This document shows, one piece after another, positions 24,377 through 41,766 of a stretch of DNA of 47,277 bases (the first letter of the stretch is position 1; each line of letters starts with the position of its first letter). The notes beneath the pieces are model-generated. The model saw only the letters and a program-made list of their open reading frames with translations, made no database searches and was not told the DNA's origin. Position numbers and translations under genes: made by a program. The DNA comes from Anaerolineales bacterium (GTDB taxonomy: Bacteria; Chloroflexota; Anaerolineae; Anaerolineales; UBA6663), in NCBI GenBank assembly GCA_020845955.1, contig JADLEU010000035.1, forward strand, positions 1 to 47,277. Direction: 5' to 3'.

Positions 24377-24436
24377 ATGTACCACACCACTCATCCTGAA
24401 TTGAACGAGTCAGAGGAGGAAAGGATTACGCCATGA
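24377..24436 (+). CDS. Possible 19-codon leader ORF overlapping the binding-protein start
   Basis: A short frame starts ATG TAC CAC and ends CCA TGA, its stop overlapping the ATG of the binding-protein gene by four bases (ATGA). It would encode MYHTTHPELNESEEERITP. The bases for the next gene's Shine-Dalgarno (GAGGAGG) lie inside it as Glu-Glu codons. A near-perfect Shine-Dalgarno (AGGAGGTGATC, 24339-24349) is further upstream, 27 bases from this ATG and 14 from another ATG at 24364, so neither spacing is good. It may be chance; see findings. Confidence 0.25.
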   Translation: MYHTTHPELNESEEERITP

Positions 24437-25551
24437 AGCATGCACGTAAGCTGTACTCGCTGTTCAGTCTGCTCGCCTTGGTCGCCCTGCTCGCCACCGC
24501 CTGCACGCCGGCCGCCACGACCGCAGCGCCCACCGCTGTGCCGCCCACCGCTGTGCCGCCCACCGCTGCCCCACCGACTACAGCCCCCGAGCCCACCGAA
24601 GAACCGGCGCCCGAGATCGGCACAGAAGCCCATCCGATCAAGGTCTTGTTCGTGCCCTCGGTGGACGCGAATATGATCGTCTCGGGTGGCGAGGTGATGG
24701 CGGAGGCGCTGAAGGAGGCGACCGGCCTGGTCTACGCGGTGAGCGTGCCGACTTCCTACGCCGCCACCATTGAAGAGATTTGCGCCTCGCCTGACGATAC
24801 GATGGCCTTCATCCCAGCGCAGGGCTATGTGATCGCCAACCAGCTCTGCGGCGTCGACGTGGCCTTCAAGGCCATCCGCCGCGGCTGGGGCGTCTACTGG
24901 GCCCAGTTCATCGTCCGGCGCGACAGCGGCATCGAAACCCTGGAAGACCTGGATGGCCTGAGCTGGGCCTATCCTGATGCCGGTTCCACCTCCGGCTACC
25001 TGGCCCCCTTGGTCTACATGAAGGAACTCGGCATCGAGCCTGGCGAGACCGTCGAGTCTGGCGGGCACCCTCAAGTGGTGAACGCCGTCCTCAACGGCGA
25101 GGCGGACTTTGGGACCACCTTCTTTAGCCCCTACGCCGTGCCTGAAGGCGAGACCCGCTGGGCCGTGGGGGATGCGCCTGACGTCCCCGACGACGTGATC
25201 GAATCCTGCGCCCCCAACGAGCAGGGCCTGTTCTGCGGGGACTATCAAGTCCTCGACGCCCGCGCCAACGTGCGCGAAGAAGCACCCGACGTCGTCCAGC
25301 AAGTCAAGATCCTCGGCCTGACCTCGCCCATCCCGAACGACACCTTGTCCTTCAGCCCTGATTTCCCGGCCGAGTTGCGGGCGCAGATCGAAGCCGCATT
25401 GGTGGCCTTCGCCGAGACTGACGCCTGGGGGGAGTCCATCGGCAGCGAAGACTTCTACGGCTGGAGCGGCCTCGAGCCGGCCCAGGATGAAGAGTACGAC
25501 CTGATCCGCGCGATGGTGGAAGAGGCCGGCATCACCTTGGAAGACCTCTAG
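24433..25551 (+). CDS. phnD: ABC transporter substrate-binding lipoprotein, PhnD family
   Basis: The 372-residue product has a lipoprotein signal (ALLATAC, Cys24 lipidated). A Pro/Thr/Ala linker follows (residues about 25-60), which keeps the domain off the membrane. A periplasmic-binding fold of the phosphate/phosphite/phosphonate type comes next. Signs are KVLFVPSVDANMIVSGGEVM, the YAATIEEIC region, GYVIANQ, DLDGLSWAYPDAGSTSGYLAP (the hinge/ligand loop with Ser/Thr/Ser) and VVNAVLNGEADFGTTFF. The ATG follows GAGGAGGAAAGG, an excellent site. The ligand cannot be named: PhnD relatives bind phosphonates, phosphite or other oxyanions. First gene of a transporter unit with phnC and phnE. Confidence 0.88.
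   Translation: MKHARKLYSLFSLLALVALLATACTPAATTAAPTAVPPTAVPPTAAPPTTAPEPTEEPAPEIGTEAHPIKVLFVPSVDANMIVSGGEVMAEALKEATGLVYAVSVPTSYAATIEEICASPDDTMAFIPAQGYVIANQLCGVDVAFKAIRRGWGVYWAQFIVRRDSGIETLEDLDGLSWAYPDAGSTSGYLAPLVYMKELGIEPGETVESGGHPQVVNAVLNGEADFGTTFFSPYAVPEGETRWAVGDAPDVPDDVIESCAPNEQGLFCGDYQVLDARANVREEAPDVVQQVKILGLTSPIPNDTLSFSPDFPAELRAQIEAALVAFAETDAWGESIGSEDFYGWSGLEPAQDEEYDLIRAMVEEAGITLEDL
24529..24573 (+). repeat. Three 15-base tandem repeats encoding the linker
   Basis: CCCACCGCTGTGCCG occurs twice in direct tandem (24529-24543, 24544-24558), followed by a third copy with changes at its 3' end (24559-24573). It encodes PTAVP repeats in the lipoprotein linker. Such repeats can change copy number by slippage without breaking the frame. 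Confidence 0.85.
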
Positions 25552-25567
25552 CCCGAACGCCGTCAGC

Positions 25568-25603
25568 GCTTTCCCGAGCGGGGGCTGTCCCGCTCGGGAA
25601 AGC
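25568..25603 (+). terminator. Strong hairpin after phnD (attenuator or mRNA stabiliser)
   Basis: A perfect 15-base-pair stem (25568-25582 with 25589-25603) and 6-base loop start 16 bases after the phnD stop. No U-run follows, so it is more likely a partial terminator or an exonuclease barrier. Either would keep binding-protein mRNA above permease mRNA. Confidence 0.6.
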
Positions 25604-25609
25604 CTCGGC

Positions 25610-25637
25610 GGCCAGGCCGGCTGACGCCGGCCTGGCC
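25610..25637 (+). terminator. Second hairpin in the phnD-phnC gap
   Basis: A perfect 11-base-pair stem (25610-25620 with 25627-25637) and 6-base loop, 6 bases after the first hairpin. The tandem pair fills most of the 104-base gap before phnC. Confidence 0.55.
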
Positions 25638-25655
25638 CGCGGCTGCTAAGACGAC

Positions 25656-26408
25656 ATGCTCAGCGTCCAACATGTCACGAAGGTCTACGACGGCACTGTC
25701 CGCGCTCTGGAAGACGTCACGTTTGACGTCTCTAAGGGCCAGTTCCTGGCCGTGATCGGGCTGAGTGGCTCGGGCAAATCGACCCTGCTCCGCTGCATCA
25801 ACCGCCTGATTGACCCGACGGCCGGGCGCATCGTGTTCGATGGCGTGGACGTGACTGCCGCCAACGAAGCCGAGCTTCGCCGCATTCGCCGGCGGATCGG
25901 CATGGTTTTCCAGCACTTCAACTTGGTTCATCGCTCGAGTGTCCTCACCAACGTTCTGTCCGGCCGGCTGGGCTACGTCAATCCTGCCTTGAGCATCATC
26001 AACCGGTTTCCGGCAGAAGATGTGCACAAGGCTCGCTTGCAGTTGGAGCGCGTCGGCCTGGCCGATAAAGCCAGCAACCGCGCCGACGAGTTGAGCGGCG
26101 GCCAGCAGCAGCGGGTGGGCATCGCGCGCGCGCTGATGCAGGATCCCGACATGATCCTGGCCGATGAGCCGGTGGCCAGCCTGGACCCGGTCCTGGCCCA
26201 CAGCATCATGCAGTACCTGGAGCAGATTAATCACGAGGACGGCGTTACGGTCCTGTGCAGTTTGCACTTCCTTGACCTGGTGCATCGGTACGCCAATCGG
26301 GCCATCGCTCTCAATCAAGGCCGGTTAGTGTTTGATGGGCCTCCCGACGAGATTGACGATCAGCGCTTCAAGGAAATCTACGGCAAGGAAGCCGAGCGGG
26401 TTGGGTAA
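25656..26408 (+). CDS. phnC: ABC transporter ATP-binding protein, PhnC family
   Basis: The ATPase of the transporter, 250 residues. Walker A is GLSGSGKST (about 35-43), the Q-loop region is [10 protein letters not shown], the signature is [15 protein letters not shown], Walker B is [13 protein letters not shown] and the switch is LCSLHFLDL. The insertion between the Q loop and the signature ([20 protein letters not shown]) is typical of PhnC. It is separated from phnD by two hairpins and from phnE by 14 bases. The ATG at 25656 begins [13 protein letters not shown]. The assignment to the PhnC branch rests on that insertion and on its neighbours. Confidence 0.93.
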
Positions 26409-26422
26409 GGCCGGAGGCTGGG

Positions 26423-28237
26423 GTGAATAAAGCGTCTCCCCTGAAGTCACTGCGATTAGGCCTCTTCGTCCTGGCCGCCCTGGTGATCTATGCCTATGGC
26501 TTTCAGGTCACCGATGTCAACCTCGACGAGATCCAATCCGAAACGCGCCAGACGCGCCTGGCGCGCATCATCCGGGCCCTCTTTCGCCCCGATCTGTTCG
26601 AATACGAGCACGAGGAATTTCAGGTCAACACGCCCATCTCCGTTCCCTGTCCAGCCGGCGGCGTGCTGCCCACCCCTCGGCCAACGGCGGGCGAACCCTA
26701 CCTGGTCCTGACGCCGCCTTGCGCCGACCCGCGCGCCGAGGTGACCGTGGAGGGCTTCAATTTCGAGCCTAACACCGTCGGCCCACTCAACTTCATCCCG
26801 CCCAGCGGCGTCTCGCTCACCATGGCGAACGTCGAAACGGACAGCGACGGCCACTTTGCGATCTCCGCGCGCCTGCCCAACCGGCCCAGCGAAGAGGTGC
26901 AGACCATTCGCGCGATCACCCGCCGCAATGTGGGTGCGCCTATGTGGAGCCAGAATGCTCGGGATACGTGGAGCAAGATCATCGAAACCGTGTTCCTGGC
27001 TCTGCTCGCCACGACTCTGGCGACCATCCTGGCGGTGCCGATCAGCTTCTTCGCCGCCCGCAATCTTATGCGCGATGTGACAACTTCCTTGGCCAGCACG
27101 GCGTTGGCGATCCTGGCCTGGCCGGCCGGCATCCTCATCGGAGCTTCAGTCGCAGGGTGGGTTGGGCAGGCCAGCCGCATGTTGACGGCCAGCCTGGCAA
27201 TCCACGTCGGCGCCATCATCGTCGGGCCCCTGCTGATCTGGGGCGCGGCCCGCTGGGCGGTGCCGCCCGAAGAGCGCCGCGTTCCCACCATCTGGCTGCG
27301 TCTGGCGCGCCAGGCGGCCTTGCTGGTCGCCGTTGTCATCAGCGTGCTAGCGCTGTTTCTGGTTGCCCAGTTGGCCTCTGATCTGGGAGCCGCGCTGCGC
27401 GATCGCCTGGGCGCCCTTGGCTTCCTGGGTGAGTTCTTCGCCGACCTGGGCGACATTGTCAGCCTGCTGATCGTGCCGATTGCGGCCCTGGCAGCCGGCG
27501 CTGTCGTGGGTAGCCTGGCGAGCCGTCTGGGGCAGATGCTGAATGAGCACGCCTCCGGCGGGCTTTGGTACACGCTGCATTTCGGGCTGGGGATCCTGGG
27601 TGGCACGGTCCTCGGGCTGCTGATCGGCGGCGCCATTGGGTGGTTGTACGAGATCTCCGACCCCGTGTTCACACGCGCGCTGCCCGCCGCGCTGGGTGGG
27701 TTGGGCGGCCTGGCTCTCGCCGTCCGCACCCACGCCGGCCGGCCGGTGGCGATTGGCCTCACCATTTACTACCTCACCCGCACAATTCTCAACGCCCTGC
27801 GCTCCATCGAAGCCCTGATCGTCGCCTTGGTGATGGTGGTGTGGGTCGGTCTTGGGCCCTTCGCCGGGGCACTGGCGCTGGCCCTCCATAGCATCGCCGC
27901 GGGCAGCAAGCTGTACTCTGAGCAAGTCGAGAGTATTATGCCCGGGCCGTTGGAAGCCATTAAAGCGACTGGCGCCACCAGGCTGCAAACGATCATCTAT
28001 GCGGTGATCCCTCAGATCATCCCGCCTTATATCTCCTTCACTATGTATCGCTGGGACATCAACGTGCGCATGTCTACCATCATTGGCTTCGTAGGCGGCG
28101 GCGGCATCGGTTTCTTGCTCCAGCAGAACATGAACCTGCTCGACTACCGCGGCGCGTCGGCGCAGATCCTCGCCATTGCCATCGTGGTCGCGACGATGGA
28201 CTACATCAGTTCTCGACTGCGCGAGCGCGCCATCTAG
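26423..28237 (+). CDS. phnE: ABC transporter permease, PhnE family, greatly enlarged
   Basis: The C-terminal 156 residues (449-604) are a normal PhnE core: LTRTILNALRSIEALIVALV, GLGPFAGALALALHSI, the coupling-helix region MPGPLEAIKATGATRLQTI and FVGGGGIGFLL. The first core helices lie at about 183-217 (ETVFLALLATTLATILAVPI, SFFAARNL). Two extra parts are inserted. A periplasmic Ig-like domain (about 70-175, with PCPAGG, TPPCADPRAEVTVEGFNF) follows the first helix. About 230 residues (218-448) containing several further hydrophobic helices split the core. PhnE is usually about 270 residues; this one is 604. The start is GTG at 26423 with GGAGG five bases upstream. The frame is continuous, so this is not an assembly error. 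Confidence 0.88.
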   Translation: MNKASPLKSLRLGLFVLAALVIYAYGFQVTDVNLDEIQSETRQTRLARIIRALFRPDLFEYEHEEFQVNTPISVPCPAGGVLPTPRPTAGEPYLVLTPPCADPRAEVTVEGFNFEPNTVGPLNFIPPSGVSLTMANVETDSDGHFAISARLPNRPSEEVQTIRAITRRNVGAPMWSQNARDTWSKIIETVFLALLATTLATILAVPISFFAARNLMRDVTTSLASTALAILAWPAGILIGASVAGWVGQASRMLTASLAIHVGAIIVGPLLIWGAARWAVPPEERRVPTIWLRLARQAALLVAVVISVLALFLVAQLASDLGAALRDRLGALGFLGEFFADLGDIVSLLIVPIAALAAGAVVGSLASRLGQMLNEHASGGLWYTLHFGLGILGGTVLGLLIGGAIGWLYEISDPVFTRALPAALGGLGGLALAVRTHAGRPVAIGLTIYYLTRTILNALRSIEALIVALVMVVWVGLGPFAGALALALHSIAAGSKLYSEQVESIMPGPLEAIKATGATRLQTIIYAVIPQIIPPYISFTMYRWDINVRMSTIIGFVGGGGIGFLLQQNMNLLDYRGASAQILAIAIVVATMDYISSRLRERAI

Positions 28238-33847: not shown

Positions 33848-34819
33848 TTAACCGCCCCTAAACACAGACCGCAGCGCAGGTGAGTTGAGCAGGATCATCG
33901 CCGCCGGTCCCAACAGCACGATGTAGATCGAGGGAAAGATCAGGAAGGCCATTGGGATCAGCATCTTCACCGGCGCCTCGTGAGCTTTCTTTTCGGCGCG
34001 CTGCCGGCGCTTGATGCGCATTTGGTCAGACTGGATCCGCAGCACCTTGCCCATGCTGACACCCAACTGGTCAGCCTGGATGATGGCGGCCACAAAACTA
34101 GACATGTCGGCAATATCCATGCGGTCGGCCATGTCGCGCAGCGCTTCGCGCCGCAGTTTGCCGAGCCGGATTTCCTGCAGCACCCGTTCAAAAGCCAGCG
34201 AGAGCTCGTTCTCCCACTTCTCGGCCACTTTCGCCATGGCCTGATCAAAGCCCAAGCCGGCCTCGACGCAGACGGTCAGTAAGTCCAGCGCGTCGGGCAT
34301 CGCCTTGGTGATCAGGTCTTGCCGGCGCTTGATGCGGCTCTGGAGCAGCATCACCGGCAGGAAGAACCCAACCAGCATGCCGCCCAGGGCAAACAACAAC
34401 GCCTTGAAGGTGCCCGTGCGGATGGAGAGGAACGAGTCTGCCGGCGCGACAAACGTAACGAACAAGATGAAGGCGCCCAACCCCAGGGTTGCTACGATCC
34501 GAATAGCCCAGAACAGGGTGGGATCCAAACCGCGCGGGTTGCCCGCCAGGTCAAGCTGGTGCTGGATTGACTCGAGCGAAGCCTGCGGCGTGAACCGCGA
34601 CGCCAGATGCCCCAAACGGCGCATGGTAGGCAGCAGCACGCGCTCGCTAAAGGGCTGCGCCAGCTCGATTTCCTCCAGCGTCAGCGGCCGTTCGCGGGTC
34701 GAGAACTCGGCCAGGCGCGTCTGCAGCGGGTCGGCCTGGCTGGGCGAGCGCAAGCCGACAATCACCAGGATGATCGCCACCAGTAAAACGATGCCGCCGC
34801 CGATGAGCAGTAGAGGCAT
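33848..34819 (-). CDS. tadC: Tad pilus assembly membrane protein, TadC-type
   Basis: A type II secretion F-domain protein of 323 residues. It begins with a membrane helix (LLLIGGGIVLLVAIILVIVG). The characteristic F-domain follows (about 170-280, MPDALDLLTVCVEAGLGFDQ, FVAAIIQADQLGVSMGKVLR), then two C-terminal helices (MLIPMAFLIFPSIYIVLLG). It forms the inner-membrane platform that the ATPase CpaF drives to add pilin. The ATG at 34817-34819 follows GGGAGGAG. It is 13 bases after tadB, so both come from one transcript. The TadC assignment over TadB rests on position and length. Confidence 0.9.
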   Translation of the reverse strand: MPLLLIGGGIVLLVAIILVIVGLRSPSQADPLQTRLAEFSTRERPLTLEEIELAQPFSERVLLPTMRRLGHLASRFTPQASLESIQHQLDLAGNPRGLDPTLFWAIRIVATLGLGAFILFVTFVAPADSFLSIRTGTFKALLFALGGMLVGFFLPVMLLQSRIKRRQDLITKAMPDALDLLTVCVEAGLGFDQAMAKVAEKWENELSLAFERVLQEIRLGKLRREALRDMADRMDIADMSSFVAAIIQADQLGVSMGKVLRIQSDQMRIKRRQRAEKKAHEAPVKMLIPMAFLIFPSIYIVLLGPAAMILLNSPALRSVFRGG

Positions 34820-34832
34820 ACGCTCCTCCCAG

Positions 34833-35822
34833 CTAGACTTCGATGTCTACGATCTTCTGCACGATGGCAAAGCCCGTGGCGATCATGATCAGAGCCGTCA
34901 CCACCATGGCAATGCCGCAGATGGGCAGCCCGAATACAATCGGCGGGCCAAAGATGCTGTTCATATAGCTGCGGTTGATGATCCACAGGAATAGCCCCAG
35001 CCCAATGGGAAGCAGCGAAATAACCCAGGCCGTGATTTGGCCTTGGGCCGTCAGTGTGGCAATTTCACCCTTGATCCGCACGCGTTCCCGAATGGTGTAG
35101 CTGATATTATCGAGAATCTCGGCCAGGTTGCCGCCGACTTCCCGCTGCACGTTCATGGCCGTCACGACAAAGTCAAGGTCAGCGCTGGGCACCCGGCGGG
35201 TCAGGTTTGCCAGGGCGGCCTCCTGCGGCAAGCCCAGTTGGATCTCCTGCACCACGCGGTGAAACTCGACCGAGATCGGCGGCGGCAGCTCGCGCCCCAC
35301 TGACTCCAGCGCCTGCATCGGGCTGTAGCCGGCCCGCAGACCGTTCACAACTAGGTTGAGCATATCGCCCAGCTGGTTGTCGAAATTGCGGAGGCGTTTG
35401 CGCTGCTGGTAGCCCAGATACATCCGAGGCACAAACAGCGCGCCGATCCCCGCGAGGAGGCCCATAAAGATCGACCGCCCGCCGATCAGCCAGCCTGCGG
35501 CGAAGAAAGCGAAGGCCAGCAAGATGTGCAGCGCGAGGTATTCAGCCACATTCAGCTTGAGATCCGCACGGGCCAGTTCGCGCTGAATTCGATCGGCGAA
35601 ACCGCGGCCGGCTATCGCGCGGTTTAGCGCCGTCGACAGATTGGTCGATTGGCGCCGTTGATCCTCGTCGATTGGCGTGCTCACCAATTGGCCCGCCTGC
35701 GTGATCTGCCCCAGGCGCTCTTCAACCACCGTGCGCCGGCGCTCCAGCACCGCGAAGGCCCCGATGATCAGCAGGTTCATCAGGACGACGCCCACCAAAA
35801 TGGCCCCGGATATCATGTTCAC
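34833..35822 (-). CDS. tadB: Tad pilus assembly membrane protein, TadB-type
   Basis: Second platform protein, 329 residues. A helix at the start (LVGVVLMNLLIIGAFAVLER), two further central helices (LHILLAFAFFAAGWLIGG) and the F-domain (about 165-280, NQLGDMLNLVVNGLRAGYSP, VVTAMNVQREVGGNLAEILD) are seen. The C-terminal helices follow (ISLLPIGLGLFLWIINRSYM). I chose the GTG at 35820-35822 because GGAGG lies 5 bases upstream; an ATG two codons later is possible, and the longer frame to 35999 overlaps cpaF coding sequence. The gene is 31 bases after cpaF in the same transcript. Confidence 0.9.
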   Translation of the reverse strand: MNMISGAILVGVVLMNLLIIGAFAVLERRRTVVEERLGQITQAGQLVSTPIDEDQRRQSTNLSTALNRAIAGRGFADRIQRELARADLKLNVAEYLALHILLAFAFFAAGWLIGGRSIFMGLLAGIGALFVPRMYLGYQQRKRLRNFDNQLGDMLNLVVNGLRAGYSPMQALESVGRELPPPISVEFHRVVQEIQLGLPQEAALANLTRRVPSADLDFVVTAMNVQREVGGNLAEILDNISYTIRERVRIKGEIATLTAQGQITAWVISLLPIGLGLFLWIINRSYMNSIFGPPIVFGLPICGIAMVVTALIMIATGFAIVQKIVDIEV

Positions 35823-35853: not shown

Positions 35854-37290
35854 CTAGTAGCGCACCCGCTCACCAATCCCAAAGACAGCCGGCGGCAGGT
35901 GGATGCCGGCGTCCTCAATGCGATCCATATACTTCGGCCGCAGCCCGGTCGGCCGCAGCCGGCCGGTGATCCGGTTCTTTTCATAGCCCGACTGCTCAAA
36001 TACGAACAAGTCGGTCATCGTGATAATGTCGCCTTCCATGCCCTGCACCTCGGCGACCTGCACGATCTTGCGTGTCCCGTCGCGCATGCGCTCGAGGTGG
36101 ACGATCAAGTTGATCGCCGAAGAGATTTGCTCGCGGATCGCGCGGACCGGCAGATCCATGCCAGCCATGAGTGTCATGGTCTCCAGGCGCGCCAGGGAAT
36201 CGCGAGCGCTGTTCGAGTGGCAGGTGGTCATTGATCCGTCATGGCCGGTGTTCATGGCCTGGAGCATATCCAGCGCGGCCTCGTCGCGAATTTCCCCGAC
36301 CACGATCCGGTCGGGCCGCATGCGCAGCGAGTTCACGACCAGGTGCTGGATCGTTACTTCACCGCGACCCTCGATATTGGCCGGCCGCGATTCCAGGGTG
36401 ACCACGTGCTCTTGGCGCAGCTGCAGCTCCGCGGCGTTCTCAATCGTGACAATCCGCTCATCCTGAGGAATGAACCCGGACAGGATGTTGAGAAAAGTCG
36501 TCTTGCCCGATCCCGTGCCGCCCGAGATCACAACGTTCAGGCGGGCAATCACGGCCGCCTTCATGAACTCGATCGCCTCTGCCGTAATCGCGCCGAACTC
36601 AATCAGTTTTTCAACGGTGATGGGTGTCTTGAAGAACTTGCGGATGGTCAGGCACGGCCCGACTAGCGAGATGGGAGGCACAACCGCATTCACGCGCGAA
36701 CCGTCCGGCAGACGGGCGTCTTCGTAGGGATGAGCCTCGTCTACGCGCCGGCCCAGCGGCGCCATGATGCGATCGATGATGCGCATCACGTGCTCGTTGC
36801 TCTCAAAGGCGAACGGTACGCGCTCGAGCTTGCCTTTGCGCTCGATGTACAGGTTCTTGGGCCCGTTCACCATGACTTCGGTGATGGTCTCGTCTTGCAG
36901 CAGCGGCTCGATCGGCCCCAGGCCCAGGATCTCGGACACGATCTGATCGAACAGGCGCTTTCGTTCGGCGCGCGAGAGCACGATGCCCTCTTCGGCCAGG
37001 ATGGTTTCGTAAAGGTCTTCGATCGCCCGGCGCACGTCGGCCGTCCGCGTCACGTCCATCGACGGATCCAGCTGCGTCAGCAGCTTGTTCTGAACGCGGG
37101 CTTTCAGGTCGACCGCCCCCCCGCCCCCGGTGGCAACGCCGGGCGCGGGCGGCGCCGCCCGCCGCATGCGCAGTTCAGCCAGTTTAGAGGCCTGGTCCTG
37201 GCCGGCCGGTGCGCCCGGCTGGCTGGGCGCCGCGGGCGCGGGCTGATTGCTAGAAGCCTGTCCCTGTTCGATCCGCTTGAGAAGTGACAT
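35854..37290 (-). CDS. cpaF: Tad pilus assembly ATPase CpaF
   Basis: The hexameric secretion ATPase that powers pilus assembly. The 478 residues begin with a Pro/Ala/Gly-rich flexible tail (about 1-65). The N domain follows (about 66-230: ILGLGPIEPLLQDETITEVM, VNGPKNLYIERKGKLERVPF, DARLPDGSRVNAV). The motor domain has Walker A SGGTGSGKTTF (257-265), VTIENAAELQL, a Walker B region in MRPDRIVVGEIRDEAALDML and TGHDGSMTTCHSNSA. These are the standard blocks of the CpaF/TadA family. The ATG is at 37288-37290. It is 57 bases after cpaE, and the next gene tadB follows within 31 bases. Confidence 0.95.
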   Translation of the reverse strand: MSLLKRIEQGQASSNQPAPAAPSQPGAPAGQDQASKLAELRMRRAAPPAPGVATGGGGAVDLKARVQNKLLTQLDPSMDVTRTADVRRAIEDLYETILAEEGIVLSRAERKRLFDQIVSEILGLGPIEPLLQDETITEVMVNGPKNLYIERKGKLERVPFAFESNEHVMRIIDRIMAPLGRRVDEAHPYEDARLPDGSRVNAVVPPISLVGPCLTIRKFFKTPITVEKLIEFGAITAEAIEFMKAAVIARLNVVISGGTGSGKTTFLNILSGFIPQDERIVTIENAAELQLRQEHVVTLESRPANIEGRGEVTIQHLVVNSLRMRPDRIVVGEIRDEAALDMLQAMNTGHDGSMTTCHSNSARDSLARLETMTLMAGMDLPVRAIREQISSAINLIVHLERMRDGTRKIVQVAEVQGMEGDIITMTDLFVFEQSGYEKNRITGRLRPTGLRPKYMDRIEDAGIHLPPAVFGIGERVRY

Positions 37291-37347: not shown

Positions 37348-38625
37348 CTAACGCCGCTGAAACAAGCTCGGCGCCTTGGCCGGCGGCTTGCGCCCGCGTT
37401 CATCCGCCGGTGTGGCCGCTTCCTTAGGCGCAAACTCCTCGCGCAGCTTCTGCGCCAGGTCGAGAACACCCTGCACCGGCGGCAGGCTCTTCGCGCCCGT
37501 GACGAACGGCACGCCTGAATTGATCGAGGCCAGAACCGTCTTTTCGTCCAACAGGATCTGGCCGCGCACGGTGTGCTTCAGGGTTTCTTCCACGTTGGCG
37601 GCCGTAATCCCGCCGCGCCGGTCCACCCGGTTGAGCAGCAGCCAGACCCGCTCCGAAGGCATCTCGAGTTTTTCGATCAAATCAAAGAACTTTTTGATGT
37701 TGGCCAGCGACGGGATGTCCGGCGTGGCCACCAGCAAGACCCGGTCCGAGACGTCGAAGATGGTTAGCTCTACGTCGCGCAGGACCGCAGCTGTATCGAC
37801 CACAACATAGTGGAAGTGTTCACGCAGTGCCTCCAGCACCTTCTTGAGCTGTCCGGCGCCGACCAGCTCAGCATCTTCCGGCGTGGGCGGTCCCAGCAGC
37901 ACCTTCACGCCTGACGAGTGCGAGGCGACCACGCTCTGGATGAAGTCCTCCTCGATTTCGTCGGCTCGCTCGGCCAGGCTGACCAGGCTGTATTTGCCCT
38001 GGAGGTTGAGAAACACGCCTACATCGCCAAACTGCAGGTTAGCATCGACGATGATGACCTTATTGTCGCCGCTGTGCAGCGCCAGCGCCAGGTTAGTGGC
38101 CAGCGTCGTGCAGCCGGCGCCGCCCTTGGGGCTGAAGACCGAGATGATCTTGCCGCCCACGCCCTTGTGGCCGGCCGCGCCTGGCGTGCCTGGGGGGGGC
38201 TGGGTGGCGGCCAGCAGCTCACGCTGCCGGCTCATCTGGCCCAGCCGCCGAATCGTGTTGATCAGTTCGTCGGCCGGCGGGGGCTTGGAGAGGAAATCGC
38301 GGGCGCCGGCCAGCATTGCGCGGCGCAGGTAATCGGTGTCGCTCTGCACCGAGACGATGACGATCTGCGCGATCGGCACTTCCTTGGCGATGATTTCCGT
38401 GGCCTGAATGCCGTCCATGTCGGGCATGTTGATGTCCATCAGGACCACATTCGGCCGGGTGTCTTTGGCCAACTGGATTCCTTCCCGGCCTGAACGCGCC
38501 ATGCCCACCACGTCTATGTCGGGCTCAAACTGGAGCAATTTGCGGATGTTTTCCCGGGTCTCGGCGAAATCATCCACAATCAGCACTCGAATATTCGCGC
38601 CTGCTTGAGTTGCCATCAACGACAC
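37348..38625 (-). CDS. cpaE: CpaE-like ATPase with an intact receiver domain
   Basis: The 425 residues join a response-regulator receiver (about 12-130) to a MinD-like ATPase (about 155-400). The receiver is complete: Asp18/Asp19, phosphoacceptor Asp64 in LMDINMPDMDG, Ser92 and Lys114. The ATPase has the deviant P-loop SPKGGAGCTTLATNLALA (lysine of KGG kept, the second lysine replaced by Cys), VDANLQFGDVGVFLNL and DTAAVLRDV. This is the TadZ/CpaE branch that positions the pilus machine. A Lys/Pro/Ala tail ends it. Start is GTG at 38625 or ATG three codons later; AGGGA sits near the GTG. In many CpaE proteins the receiver is degenerate, which makes this one notable. Confidence 0.93.
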   Translation of the reverse strand: MSLMATQAGANIRVLIVDDFAETRENIRKLLQFEPDIDVVGMARSGREGIQLAKDTRPNVVLMDINMPDMDGIQATEIIAKEVPIAQIVIVSVQSDTDYLRRAMLAGARDFLSKPPPADELINTIRRLGQMSRQRELLAATQPPPGTPGAAGHKGVGGKIISVFSPKGGAGCTTLATNLALALHSGDNKVIIVDANLQFGDVGVFLNLQGKYSLVSLAERADEIEEDFIQSVVASHSSGVKVLLGPPTPEDAELVGAGQLKKVLEALREHFHYVVVDTAAVLRDVELTIFDVSDRVLLVATPDIPSLANIKKFFDLIEKLEMPSERVWLLLNRVDRRGGITAANVEETLKHTVRGQILLDEKTVLASINSGVPFVTGAKSLPPVQGVLDLAQKLREEFAPKEAATPADERGRKPPAKAPSLFQRR

Positions 38626-38748: not shown

Positions 38749-39864
38749 TTAGGGGCCGACTCCGTAGTTCAGCTTGGCCGGCAGCGCGATATTGAACCGC
38801 TCGAACATGTACTGCAGGGTAACGCTCTCGGTATCAACCCGCGAAGCGTCTCCCGCCGATCGCAGCGCCAGCGTCAGAACCACTGCGCCCGGCCGCTGGT
38901 CGACCACCCGGTTAATATAGTTTAGCACCAACGCGTCCTGGGGCGATACGACCAAGGTAATGATGTCCGGCACCGGGGTGGCCGTGGGCGGTGCCTCGGG
39001 CGACTGTGTCACCTCTGGCAGGGCCGTGGGCGTTGGATAGAGCACTTCTGGCTCCTGCGGGCCAAACTCGCCGACCCGCAGCACCAGCGCATCTTGGATG
39101 ATGCCCTGGGATACCAGGCGCGGCCGCTGGGGCTCGGAGGGAACAACGTAGAAGTCCTCGCTGGTGTTGACACCCGCCTCGCCGCGCCCGACTGCCGCAG
39201 GCACATGGGCGCCGCCGCTGTTGACCACGGCCACCAGGCTGGGCGCCTGCGGCAGCGTGGCGTCCGGGTTGGGCGGCGACAGTACGGTGGAGAGGTTGGG
39301 CAAGATCGTTTGGAAGTTTTGATCCAGGTCGATCACCGCCCAGGAGACGATGACGTTGACGTGATCGCCGTCCTTCACCCCAAAGGCCACGCCATTATTC
39401 CGATCGTATGGGATCGAAATCGCCACAAAACCTGGCGGGATCCGACCCGCGGCGTCAGAGCCGGCCGGCGACAACTGCAGCAGGCTCTCGACGATCAACG
39501 TCGAGAATATCGGCTCGCCGCGGGCGATGGTGTAGCGCGCCCGCGTGCCGACTACGTCGTCGGGATCGGTGATGGCCGACGGCGGCACGATGGACGTCGG
39601 CCAGGGGATGGACACGATGGCCTCGGTAGGGATCACCACCCCGCGCTCCAGGGTCTGCCCGGCCGCGATGATTTGCAGCAGCTGCTCGGGCGTCGCCGTG
39701 ATCGCAATTGGGGTGGAGCCGCCCGGCGCCCCCGGCGCGGCGGGTGTGTCTGAGCCAATAGTGCCCCCCGGCACGCGCCCACTGAACCAGAAGGCAAGGA
39801 AAATACCTCCCGCGCTCAAGATCAGCAGCAGCGCAATCAGGATAAGAAAGCGTCCGCGTCGCAT
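38749..39864 (-). CDS. cpaB: Tad pilus assembly protein CpaB/RcpC
   Basis: The 371-residue protein begins with a signal anchor (GRFLILIALLLILSAGGIFL). It then has a SAF-type domain near 60-110 (AAGQTLERGVVIPTEAIVSI), and a CpaB/RcpC core with GFVAISIPYDRNNGVAFGV and DGDHVNVIVS near residues 160-185. A Pro/Thr stretch (LYPTPTALPEVTQSPEAPPT) precedes a C-terminal strand region (LVVSPQDALVLNYINRVVDQ). In diderms this protein works with the secretin CpaC; none is in the window, as expected for a monoderm. The ATG at 39862-39864 follows GGAGGGAG. First of the five Tad genes. Confidence 0.9.
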   Translation of the reverse strand: MRRGRFLILIALLLILSAGGIFLAFWFSGRVPGGTIGSDTPAAPGAPGGSTPIAITATPEQLLQIIAAGQTLERGVVIPTEAIVSIPWPTSIVPPSAITDPDDVVGTRARYTIARGEPIFSTLIVESLLQLSPAGSDAAGRIPPGFVAISIPYDRNNGVAFGVKDGDHVNVIVSWAVIDLDQNFQTILPNLSTVLSPPNPDATLPQAPSLVAVVNSGGAHVPAAVGRGEAGVNTSEDFYVVPSEPQRPRLVSQGIIQDALVLRVGEFGPQEPEVLYPTPTALPEVTQSPEAPPTATPVPDIITLVVSPQDALVLNYINRVVDQRPGAVVLTLALRSAGDASRVDTESVTLQYMFERFNIALPAKLNYGVGP

Positions 39865-40026: not shown

Positions 40027-41067
40027 CTAGGCGGGTGGTCCCGCGGGCACTTCAACCACCACCCGGGCACCCTGGCCCGGCTGGCTGTCGATATGTAACA
40101 GCCCCGACAACAAGTCCATCCGTTCCTGCAAGGTCGGCAGGCCAGTTGTCTTGGCCTTGCCGCTCAAGACTGCCTGCGGGTCAAACCCCTTGCCGTTGTC
40201 CTCGACAACTACCCGCACGCGCTGGCCATCGAAGTCGAGCGTCAGCCGCACCTGTGTGGCCTGCGCGTGCTGCCGCACGTTGCTCAGCAGTTCCTGCGTC
40301 GCTCGGAATATCACCACCTCGCGAGCCGACTCCATGCGCTCTTCCGCGCCAGTCACGGTCACCACGGTTTGCAGACCGGTCTTCTCCTTGAAGGCGTCCA
40401 CGTACCGCCGCACGGTCGGCACCAGGCCCAAATCGTCCAGCATCATCGGGCGCAGGTCGAAGATAAAATCGCGCACCTTCTGGAACGTCGAAGTGGCGGA
40501 GCTCTTTAGGCTCTGCAGCTCGGCCCGGGCCCGTTCGGTGTCGATGTCGAACAGCCGCATGGCGATTTCCGTCTGCAGGATGAAGTTCGACAGGGCCTGG
40601 GCCGGGCCGTCGTGAATCTGGCGCGATAATCGCTGCCGCTCCGCCTCCTGGGCCTCGACAATGCGCACGATGACGGGCATGCCGTCGCTTTCGCCCTTCG
40701 CCGGCTCCAAAGCCTGCAGGGCTGTCTGTGTCCGTTGCAAGTGGCTTGCCAAACGCTCCAGATTGGCCTGTTCGCCCTGCAGCTTCTCCAGCTGACCGCG
40801 CATCGTGAACAAGCGCTGCTGCGCCTCGGCGGCGGCCTCGTAGGCCGTCTTAAGGTCGGCGCGCGAGATATTGTCGAGATTGCCCTGAATCTGGCGCACA
40901 TGCCCAGCTATGGCGGCGTTGCGCTGTGCCAGCTTCTCCACCTCGCCCCGGCTCTGCTCAACCATCCGGTTGAGCTCGCGCAGCTCTTGCCGTGCCTGGG
41001 CATACTCCTGCTCGGTCTCGGCCGCGAGCGCGGCCAGCGGCGAAACGACAGCCGATGCTTGCGCCAT
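40027..41067 (-). CDS. DegS/NarX-type sensor histidine kinase, soluble
   Basis: The 346 residues start with a long coiled coil (about 16-120, ELRELNRMVEQSRGEVEKLA). The HisKA_3 box follows with His152 in RLSRQIHDGPAQALSNF, then a short HATPase domain (ATQELLSNVRQHAQATQVRL, VEDNGKGFDPQ, GLPTLQERMDLLSG). No membrane helix or classical sensor domain is present, so it resembles DegS, which senses internal signals through its coiled coil. The ATG at 41065-41067 follows GGAG. It lies 15 bases behind its regulator gene and 162 bases before cpaB. It probably phosphorylates that regulator. Confidence 0.93.
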   Translation of the reverse strand: MAQASAVVSPLAALAAETEQEYAQARQELRELNRMVEQSRGEVEKLAQRNAAIAGHVRQIQGNLDNISRADLKTAYEAAAEAQQRLFTMRGQLEKLQGEQANLERLASHLQRTQTALQALEPAKGESDGMPVIVRIVEAQEAERQRLSRQIHDGPAQALSNFILQTEIAMRLFDIDTERARAELQSLKSSATSTFQKVRDFIFDLRPMMLDDLGLVPTVRRYVDAFKEKTGLQTVVTVTGAEERMESAREVVIFRATQELLSNVRQHAQATQVRLTLDFDGQRVRVVVEDNGKGFDPQAVLSGKAKTTGLPTLQERMDLLSGLLHIDSQPGQGARVVVEVPAGPPA

Positions 41068-41082
41068 ACAAACCGCTCCTTG

Positions 41083-41766
41083 TCAGTCCTGCAGCCGCAC
41101 CCAGCCGCGCCGCAGCGCGTATACCGCCGCCTGCGTGCGGTCCTCGACGTCTAGCTTGTGCAGGATTGCCGTCATGTGGTTCTTGACCGTTTGGTGGCTG
41201 ATGCCCAGCGAGAGCGCAATTTCCTTGTTGCTCAGCCCCCGAGTCACATATTGCAGGATTTCCATCTCCCGCGGCGAGAGCGGCGAGAAGGCTTCGCGCG
41301 TATCGTCCACATAAGGCCGGCCCGCCTTCTCCACGGTGCTGTCAAGCCACGCCTGTAAGCCGTCTCGGTCAAACACTTGGTCGCCAACCACATAATGCCC
41401 CTGCACAACCTGCCGCAGCACCTGTACCAGTTTGCTTGGCGCAACGTCCTTCGGACAATAGGCCGACCCGCCCGCCCGGAAGGCGTGCAGCACCTGCTCG
41501 GCATCATCATATGCGGTGAGCATCACTACGGCAGCCACGCAGCGCTCGGCGCGCAGCTGGCGCGTGACCTGCAGACCGTTCAACCCCGGCAGGTTTATAT
41601 CCAGTATGAGCGCATCTGGCTGTAGGGCATGGGTTAAGTCGATGGCCTCCTGGCCGTTAGAGCCTTCACCCACGATCTCGATGTCAGCTTCGCGCTGCAG
41701 AACATCTCGTAGTCCCTGCCGAAAGAGCGGGTGATCGTCCACGACCAGAATGCTGATTTTTTCCAT
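41083..41766 (-). CDS. NarL/DegU-type response regulator
   Basis: The 227-residue regulator has a receiver with Asp10/Asp11 in VVDDHPLFRQ, phosphoacceptor Asp56 in LILDINLPG, the conserved Thr in VMLTAYDD and Lys in YCPKDVAPS. A C-terminal LuxR-type helix-turn-helix (about 160-227) reads LSPREMEILQYVTRGLSNKE, then IALSLGISHQTVKNH. It should bind DNA as a dimer when phosphorylated. An in-frame extension of 72 residues upstream has no homology; the ATG at 41764-41766 is right. First gene of the kinase pair, with a good promoter about 53 bases upstream. Confidence 0.95.
   Translation of the reverse strand: MEKISILVVDDHPLFRQGLRDVLQREADIEIVGEGSNGQEAIDLTHALQPDALILDINLPGLNGLQVTRQLRAERCVAAVVMLTAYDDAEQVLHAFRAGGSAYCPKDVAPSKLVQVLRQVVQGHYVVGDQVFDRDGLQAWLDSTVEKAGRPYVDDTREAFSPLSPREMEILQYVTRGLSNKEIALSLGISHQTVKNHMTAILHKLDVEDRTQAAVYALRRGWVRLQD

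What the first reader, a model, noticed from the sequence alone, without database searches (positions are those of the whole stretch)
37348..38625. CpaE with a complete phospho-receiver domain
Most CpaE/TadZ proteins carry a degraded receiver. Here all catalytic residues (Asp18/19, Asp64, Ser92, Lys114) are present and the ATPase part has the deviant P-loop KGGAGCTT. Pilus machine placement could therefore be switched by phosphorylation.
Basis: partly seen in the sequence, partly recalled or inferred. Interest (0 to 1): 0.52.

Follow-up and report, generated by a model that had tools for sequence, protein, structure and literature searches.

The report
Pilus organiser with working-looking phosphoreceiver
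A protein that organises the bacterial Tad pilus machine carries a complete phosphate-accepting switch domain, usually reported as worn out in this protein; in this bacterial phylum the complete form is common, which suggests that pilus assembly there may be controlled directly by a two-component signal.

Summary
On the minus strand, 37348-38625 encodes CpaE/TadZ: a receiver with Asp18, Asp19, Asp64, Ser92, Phe111 and Lys114, then a MinD/ParA ATPase with P-loop SPKGGAGCTT, in an operon-like run: LuxR-type regulator, DegS-like kinase, CpaB, CpaE, CpaF, TadB, TadC.
The rarity claim needs correcting. In 9 plasmid-borne CpaE from other phyla 0 receivers are complete, but in Chloroflexota 33 of 47 sampled families have a complete one and 14 only degraded ones. 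Complete receivers also occur in Bacillota (biased sample). On a tree of the ATPase part alone the label changes 9 times, with degraded rows nested inside complete clades. The same genome holds three further CpaE with degraded receivers.
A kinase gene lies within 4 kb upstream in 39 of 81 complete loci and 1 of 27 degraded ones (Fisher 1.6e-5; not significant in tree-independent pairs). In one lineage the kinase stands there with no regulator found nearby. Kinase covariation is stronger with the LuxR regulator's receiver than with CpaE's.
Best reading: CpaE here is a phosphorylatable response regulator whose output is the CpaE assembly around the CpaF motor. Phosphorylation itself is untested. 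New variant of a known kind.

The parts
37348..38625 (-). CpaE/TadZ: receiver domain plus MinD/ParA-type ATPase (425 aa from GTG; alternative ATG at 38616)
38242..38592 (-). Receiver domain, residues 12-128
   Evidence: Pfam Response_reg; model Z 21.6, rmsd 1.1 over 121 residues to activated CheY 7od9_A
38569..38574 (-). Codons of Asp18 and Asp19 (Mg2+ pocket)
38434..38436 (-). Codon of Asp64 (phospho-acceptor position)
38350..38352 (-). Codon of Ser92 (T/S switch position), followed by the family motif Val-Gln
38284..38286 (-). Codon of Lys114, followed by Pro115
37432..38160 (-). MinD/ParA-type ATPase domain, residues 156-398
   Evidence: 3ea0_B Z 31.7
38104..38133 (-). Deviant Walker A SPKGGAGCTT (second lysine replaced by Cys)
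35854..37290 (-). CpaF/TadA motor ATPase
34833..35816 (-). TadB platform protein (ORF runs to 35999; start at about 35816 is my choice)
33848..34819 (-). TadC platform protein
38749..39864 (-). CpaB/RcpC
40027..41067 (-). Soluble DegS-like histidine kinase (HisKA_3, HATPase_c, H-box HDGPAQ)
41083..41766 (-). NarL/LuxR-type response regulator (start at about 41766 is my choice)

Best explanation
The gene encodes the CpaE/TadZ protein of a Tad pilus operon, and its N-terminal domain is a phospho-accepting receiver rather than a worn-out one. Shown: the domain order, the complete active site, the gene run, and conservation of the active site and of its own distinctive rim (Asn at D+2, Ser-Val-Gln, Lys-Pro) across most sampled Chloroflexota families. 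Inferred: a histidine kinase phosphorylates Asp64; where a DegS-like kinase lies just upstream, as here, that kinase is the likeliest donor, shared with the LuxR regulator that would set transcription of the operon. Inferred from the Caulobacter machine: phosphorylation changes receiver-receiver contacts between CpaE dimers, and so the assembly or engagement of the CpaE ring around the CpaF motor, making pilus assembly respond to a signal without waiting for transcription.
For: Complete site in 70 of 70 rows (65 distinct genes), in 8 of 40 scored CpaF-anchored loci that had been picked for weak or missing CpaE matches, and in 33 of 47 families. Other clades lost Asp64, Lys or the Asp pair while keeping the gene next to CpaF, so these residues are not needed for the gene to stay there. 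Rim positions in 101 complete receivers: Asn 94, Ser 98, Val 94, Gln 92, Lys-Pro 101; 58 LuxR-type regulators of the loci differ (Thr 51, Ala/Ile/Gly 44 at T+1, Lys-Asp 43). Model pLDDT 90.2. Kinase within 4 kb upstream: 39 of 81 complete against 1 of 27 degraded loci; by family 16 of 30 against 1 of 15; a Pfam control found HATPase_c in 1 of 110 upstream ORFs from 28 degraded loci. Four loci (L071, L076, L087, L137) have the kinase, CpaB and CpaE with no regulator found in the stretch held. Same genome: three CpaE with degraded receivers and no kinase found beside them. Kinase DHp covaries with the CpaE receiver given CpaF (partial r 0.225, p 0.016).
Against: No phosphorylation was measured. 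42 of 81 complete loci have no kinase of this type within 4 kb. In tree-independent pairs the kinase association rests on 1-2 informative pairs and is not significant. The kinase covaries more with the LuxR receiver (0.317, p 0.0005) than with the CpaE receiver, and the latter is barely above the CpaE ATPase control (0.167, p 0.049). The residue after the catalytic lysine differs (Pro in CpaE, mostly Asp in the regulators), so one kinase serving both is not a given. The four orphan-kinase loci are one clade, so one event. The receiver-contact mechanism is carried over from Caulobacter, whose receiver is described as atypical.
Confidence: 0.55

Rival explanations
1. The operon kinase talks only to the LuxR regulator, which switches tad transcription as PprA-PprB do in Pseudomonas aeruginosa; CpaE is either phosphorylated by a kinase encoded elsewhere or not at all.
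For: Kinase and regulator are neighbours in 29 of the 39 complete loci with a kinase within 4 kb, and covariation is strongest with the regulator's receiver. A kinase-regulator pair beside a tad operon that includes tadZ has a published precedent (PMC3510237, passages seen). About half of the complete loci have no kinase nearby.
Against: Does not by itself explain why the CpaE active site and its rim are kept, nor the four loci with kinase and no regulator found, nor the second, CpaE-proximal kinase in six kinase-regulator-kinase loci.
Confidence: 0.35
2. The complete receiver is an ancestral state with no phospho-role: the acidic pocket binds Mg2+ or packs against a partner, and its loss is neutral.
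For: Degraded forms are scattered over the tree and still sit in tad gene runs; E. rectale TadZ, with an atypical receiver, folds and binds ATP (PMC13170226, passages seen; the primary paper is recalled).
Against: The catalytic positions and the rim stay fixed over deep divergence in many families, which neutral retention does not predict.
Confidence: 0.15
3. Phosphorylation switches where in the cell CpaE sits rather than how it packs on the motor.
For: Caulobacter CpaE is recruited by PodJ to the pole and promotes localisation and assembly of the CpaC secretin there (PMC5182063, passages seen).
Against: No polar landmark or secretin was looked for here; Tad pili of the Chloroflexota member Litorilinea aerophila are reported as lateral (PMC13319060, passages seen).
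Confidence: 0.3

Closest known systems
TadZ of Eubacterium rectale (PDB 3fkq) and CpaE of Caulobacter crescentus
   Same: Receiver-fold N-domain plus MinD/ParA ATPase with deviant Walker A, encoded in tad loci; 3fkq aligns over both domains of the model (Z 22.5, 331 residues). That 3fkq is TadZ is recalled; its record title says NtrC-like two-domain protein.
   Different: Their receivers are described as atypical (PMC13170226 passages; degenerate site in E. rectale recalled from Xu et al. 2012, not held); here all catalytic residues are present. Whole-chain rmsd 17.3 means another domain arrangement, or model uncertainty.
NarL/LuxR-family and CheY/CheB response regulators
   Same: Complete active site; receiver fold within 1.1 A of activated CheY; best sequence matches of the receiver are VraR/LiaR, CheB and CheY
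   Different: Output is a pilus-associated MinD-like ATPase instead of DNA binding or methylesterase; rim Ser-Val-Gln and Lys-Pro differ from the neighbouring LuxR regulators
PprA-PprB of Pseudomonas aeruginosa
   Same: Kinase and regulator genes beside a tad operon (PMC3510237, passages seen)
   Different: PprB acts on transcription; TadZ as a receiver for PprA is not mentioned in the passages seen
FrzS of Myxococcus xanthus
   Same: Receiver-like domain protein tied to type IV pili (listing and abstract starts seen)
   Different: Its receiver is atypical (recalled); no MinD-like ATPase (recalled)

Membership tests
CpaE/TadZ | Gene in a tad cluster next to CpaF/TadA and TadB/TadC | tested here: met
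   CpaB-CpaE-CpaF-TadB-TadC on the minus strand, CpaE-CpaF-TadB-TadC order in most relatives
CpaE/TadZ | N-terminal receiver fold joined to a MinD/ParA-type ATPase | tested here: met
CpaE/TadZ | Deviant Walker A with the KGG lysine | tested here: met
   SPKGGAGCTT; this lysine nearly invariant in A1
CpaE/TadZ | Degenerate receiver site (a feature of characterised members, not what defines the family by synteny) | tested here: not met
   all catalytic residues present
CpaE/TadZ | Pfam TadZ_N (PF16968) above its cut-off | tested here: not met
   19.7 bits against a cut-off of 26.4; Response_reg scores 94.4
CpaE/TadZ | ATP-driven dimerisation and role in pilus assembly | not testable with these tools
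   needs protein and cell work
Two-component response regulator | Asp pair, phospho-acceptor Asp, T/S, Lys | tested here: met
   D18 D19 D64 S92 K114
Two-component response regulator | Receiver fold | tested here: met
   7od9_A Z 21.6, rmsd 1.1, 121 residues
Two-component response regulator | Phosphoryl transfer from a histidine kinase | not testable with these tools
   no biochemistry possible
Two-component response regulator | Cognate kinase encoded nearby and coevolving | tested here: inconclusive
   kinase in the gene run, but covariation favours the LuxR regulator

The most novel reading that the evidence does not exclude
A branched two-component pathway in which one soluble DegS-like kinase controls pilus gene transcription through a LuxR regulator and, directly and fast, the pilus motor complex through phosphorylation of CpaE; in one lineage the regulator is gone from the locus and CpaE, a MinD-like motor organiser, is the pathway's only nearby output.
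Probability: 0.3. Interest if true: 0.66.

Novelty: new variant of a known kind. Interest (0 to 1): 0.5.

Why it matters
How Tad pilus extension and retraction are switched is open; a 2024 paper on CpaF names phosphorylation as one possible switch (PMC11300603, passages seen). A CpaE that is a true response regulator would put a signal input on the component modelled as a ring around the motor, and the atypical receivers of the model species would be later losses. The natural split between complete and degraded receivers, even within one genome, gives a ready comparison.

Tried and rejected
Rejected: that the complete receiver is a rarity of this genome (70 of 70 rows; 33 of 47 families). Rejected: that it is universal in Chloroflexota, as my first sample suggested; that sample was picked by best CpaE match, and of the scored CpaF-anchored loci, picked for weak or missing CpaE matches, 32 of 40 were degraded. 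Considered: the second P-loop lysine as a partner trait of the receiver; it is in 19 of 102 complete and 18 of 31 degraded rows, but tree-independent pairs show nothing. Considered: overall similarity of the CpaE receiver to the neighbouring LuxR regulator as a sign of a shared kinase; that regulator is only 30% identical to it, less than several regulators elsewhere in the genome. The covariation test gave a weak, not decisive signal. The genome-contig scan cannot give frequencies, because its patterns are receiver motifs; 24 of its 80 loci were not scored (no CpaE-CpaF pair found in the stretch).

Rows dropped: L166 and L207 (short ORFs), L056 and L077 (no CpaF found beside CpaE in the stretch), and 19 CpaF-anchored loci with no CpaE found next to CpaF. 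In the kinase count, 26 loci with under 3.9 kb upstream were left out. The kinase profile was seeded from loci with complete receivers, hence the Pfam control. 'Complete' allowed Asp or Glu at the first two positions. E. rectale TadZ residues could not be compared letter by letter (3fkq was not among the alignments shown).

Literature: no paper reporting a complete or phosphorylated CpaE/TadZ receiver was seen in the listings of searches of the open PMC library; most subscription papers are not held, so this is no proof of absence.

Full report
What is there. The window comes from a Chloroflexota genome (nearest named relative an Anaerolineales bacterium, 60% identity over CpaE). On the minus strand lies an operon-like run: LuxR-type regulator, DegS-like soluble histidine kinase, CpaB, CpaE, CpaF, TadB, TadC. 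CpaE (37348-38625) has a receiver (Response_reg 94.4 bits) and a MinD/ParA-type ATPase. The P-loop is SPKGGAGCTT: the deviant-Walker lysine is kept and the second lysine is Cys.

Is it unusual? Against other phyla, yes: in nine plasmid-borne CpaE-like proteins of Alpha- and Gammaproteobacteria and Actinomycetota, found by their place near CpaF, none has the full set (a tenth region, Caballeronia, had no annotation and was not scored). Within Chloroflexota, no. 230 of 400 genomes have a CpaE match at E 1e-35. Of 70 aligned rows (the window, 29 loci and 40 fetched regions; 5 genes occur twice, so 65 distinct) 70 are complete, with Ser at the switch position in 69. Those rows were picked by best match, so I then anchored on CpaF (245 of 400 genomes; 37 genomes searched again) and fetched 60 regions, chosen for weak or missing CpaE matches. 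Of these, 40 had a scorable CpaE beside CpaF: 8 complete, 32 degraded. By family, 30 of 47 have only complete, 14 only degraded, 3 both. The genome-contig scan, which is biased to intact sites, shows complete CpaE also in Bacillota such as Desulfosporosinus and Syntrophaceticus: of 80 loci, 56 had the CpaE-CpaF pair, 55 of them complete and one a short ORF that was dropped.

Gain or loss? On a tree of the ATPase part only (140 rows, receiver left out), the label complete/degraded changes 9 times, at least 4 of them forced by starred branches. Degraded rows sit inside complete clades, for example two that lost only Ser92 (L181, L182). Regaining several catalytic residues is less likely than losing them, so repeated loss is the better reading; the count itself cannot tell gain from loss, and the rows outside the two phyla have long branches.

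Paralogues in the same genome. Three further CpaE-CpaF-TadB-TadC sets (L246, L247, L248) have CpaE 88-97% identical to the first of them, without the Asp pair, Asp64 or Lys by eye, with P-loop STKGGDGKTT and without a kinase or regulator found. They lie with ParA, ParB-like, PrgI and VirB4-like genes, so they look like mobile elements.

Structure. The AlphaFold2 model has mean pLDDT 90.2 and pTM 0.72. The receiver matches activated CheY (7od9_A, Z 21.6, rmsd 1.1 over 121 residues), the ATPase a ParA-family protein (3ea0_B, Z 31.7, rmsd 1.9 over 240). The E. rectale protein 3fkq (TadZ by recall) aligns over both domains with Z 22.5 over 331 residues and rmsd 17.3, so the domain arrangement differs or is not fixed.

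The active-site rim. In 101 complete CpaE receivers besides the window's, D+2 is Asn in 94, the switch residue Ser in 98, T+1 Val in 94, T+2 Gln in 92, and Lys is followed by Pro in 101. In 58 LuxR-type regulators of these loci the switch is Thr in 51, T+1 is Ala, Ile or Gly in 44, T+2 mostly Tyr or His, and Lys is followed by Asp in 43. So the CpaE receivers keep a rim of their own. That such rim residues tune phosphorylation and dephosphorylation rates is recalled, not tested.

Kinase. With at least 3.9 kb upstream in hand, 39 of 81 complete loci and 1 of 27 degraded ones have a kinase of this type within 4 kb (Fisher 1.6e-5); by family 16 of 30 against 1 of 15. As the kinase profile was seeded from complete loci, I scanned 110 upstream ORFs of 28 degraded loci with Pfam: one matched HATPase_c, four Response_reg. 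The association is confounded by descent: independent pairs give 1-2 in favour, none against, not significant. Layouts: regulator-kinase-CpaB-CpaE (window), kinase-regulator-kinase before CpaE in six loci, and kinase-CpaB-CpaE without any regulator found in four. The distal kinases of the six form one clade apart from the CpaE-proximal ones; the four orphan kinases form one clade, so count as one event. Covariation over 31 loci, given CpaF distances: kinase DHp with CpaE receiver 0.225 (p 0.016), with CpaE ATPase 0.167 (p 0.049), with LuxR receiver 0.317 (p 0.0005), with LuxR DNA-binding part 0.101 (p 0.17). The kinase's first partner is therefore probably the LuxR regulator; CpaE as a second partner is possible, not shown.

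Mechanism. In the Caulobacter machine six CpaE dimers are fitted around the CpaF hexamer, contact between dimers is thought to run through tandem receivers, and CpaE moves to the base of CpaF in the piliated state (PMC13170226, passages seen). If Asp64 is phosphorylated here, the natural consequence is a change in receiver packing and so in ring assembly or motor engagement. Each step after the sequence is inference.

Verdict. New variant of CpaE/TadZ; phosphorylation untested.

Noticed in passing
L246, L247, L248 (own genome contigs C398, C333, C245): Three near-alike elements (CpaE 88-97% identical) that combine a Tad-type motor set (CpaE, CpaF, TadB, TadC) with ParA, a ParB-like protein, PrgI and a VirB4-like AAA_10 protein: possibly conjugative elements that use a Tad motor.
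   Followed up: partly
L002 / L251:7856-8980 (own genome C100): A second receiver-MinD fusion with a complete-looking receiver, with no CpaF found in the 16 kb held around it.
   Followed up: partly
L191, L194, L195, L196: CpaF loci of Chloroflexota with a LuxR-type or receiver-like ORF upstream but no CpaE ORF found next to CpaF; L191 has a kinase as well.
   Followed up: partly
L106: A contig labelled Solirubrobacterales (Actinomycetota) carries a CpaE that sits deep inside Anaerolineales on the tree: probable misbinning.
   Followed up: no
window 24433-28237: Genes that look like a phosphonate/phosphate-type ABC transporter (binding protein, ATPase, an unusually long permease of 604 aa with extra N-terminal sequence); named by eye only.
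   Followed up: no
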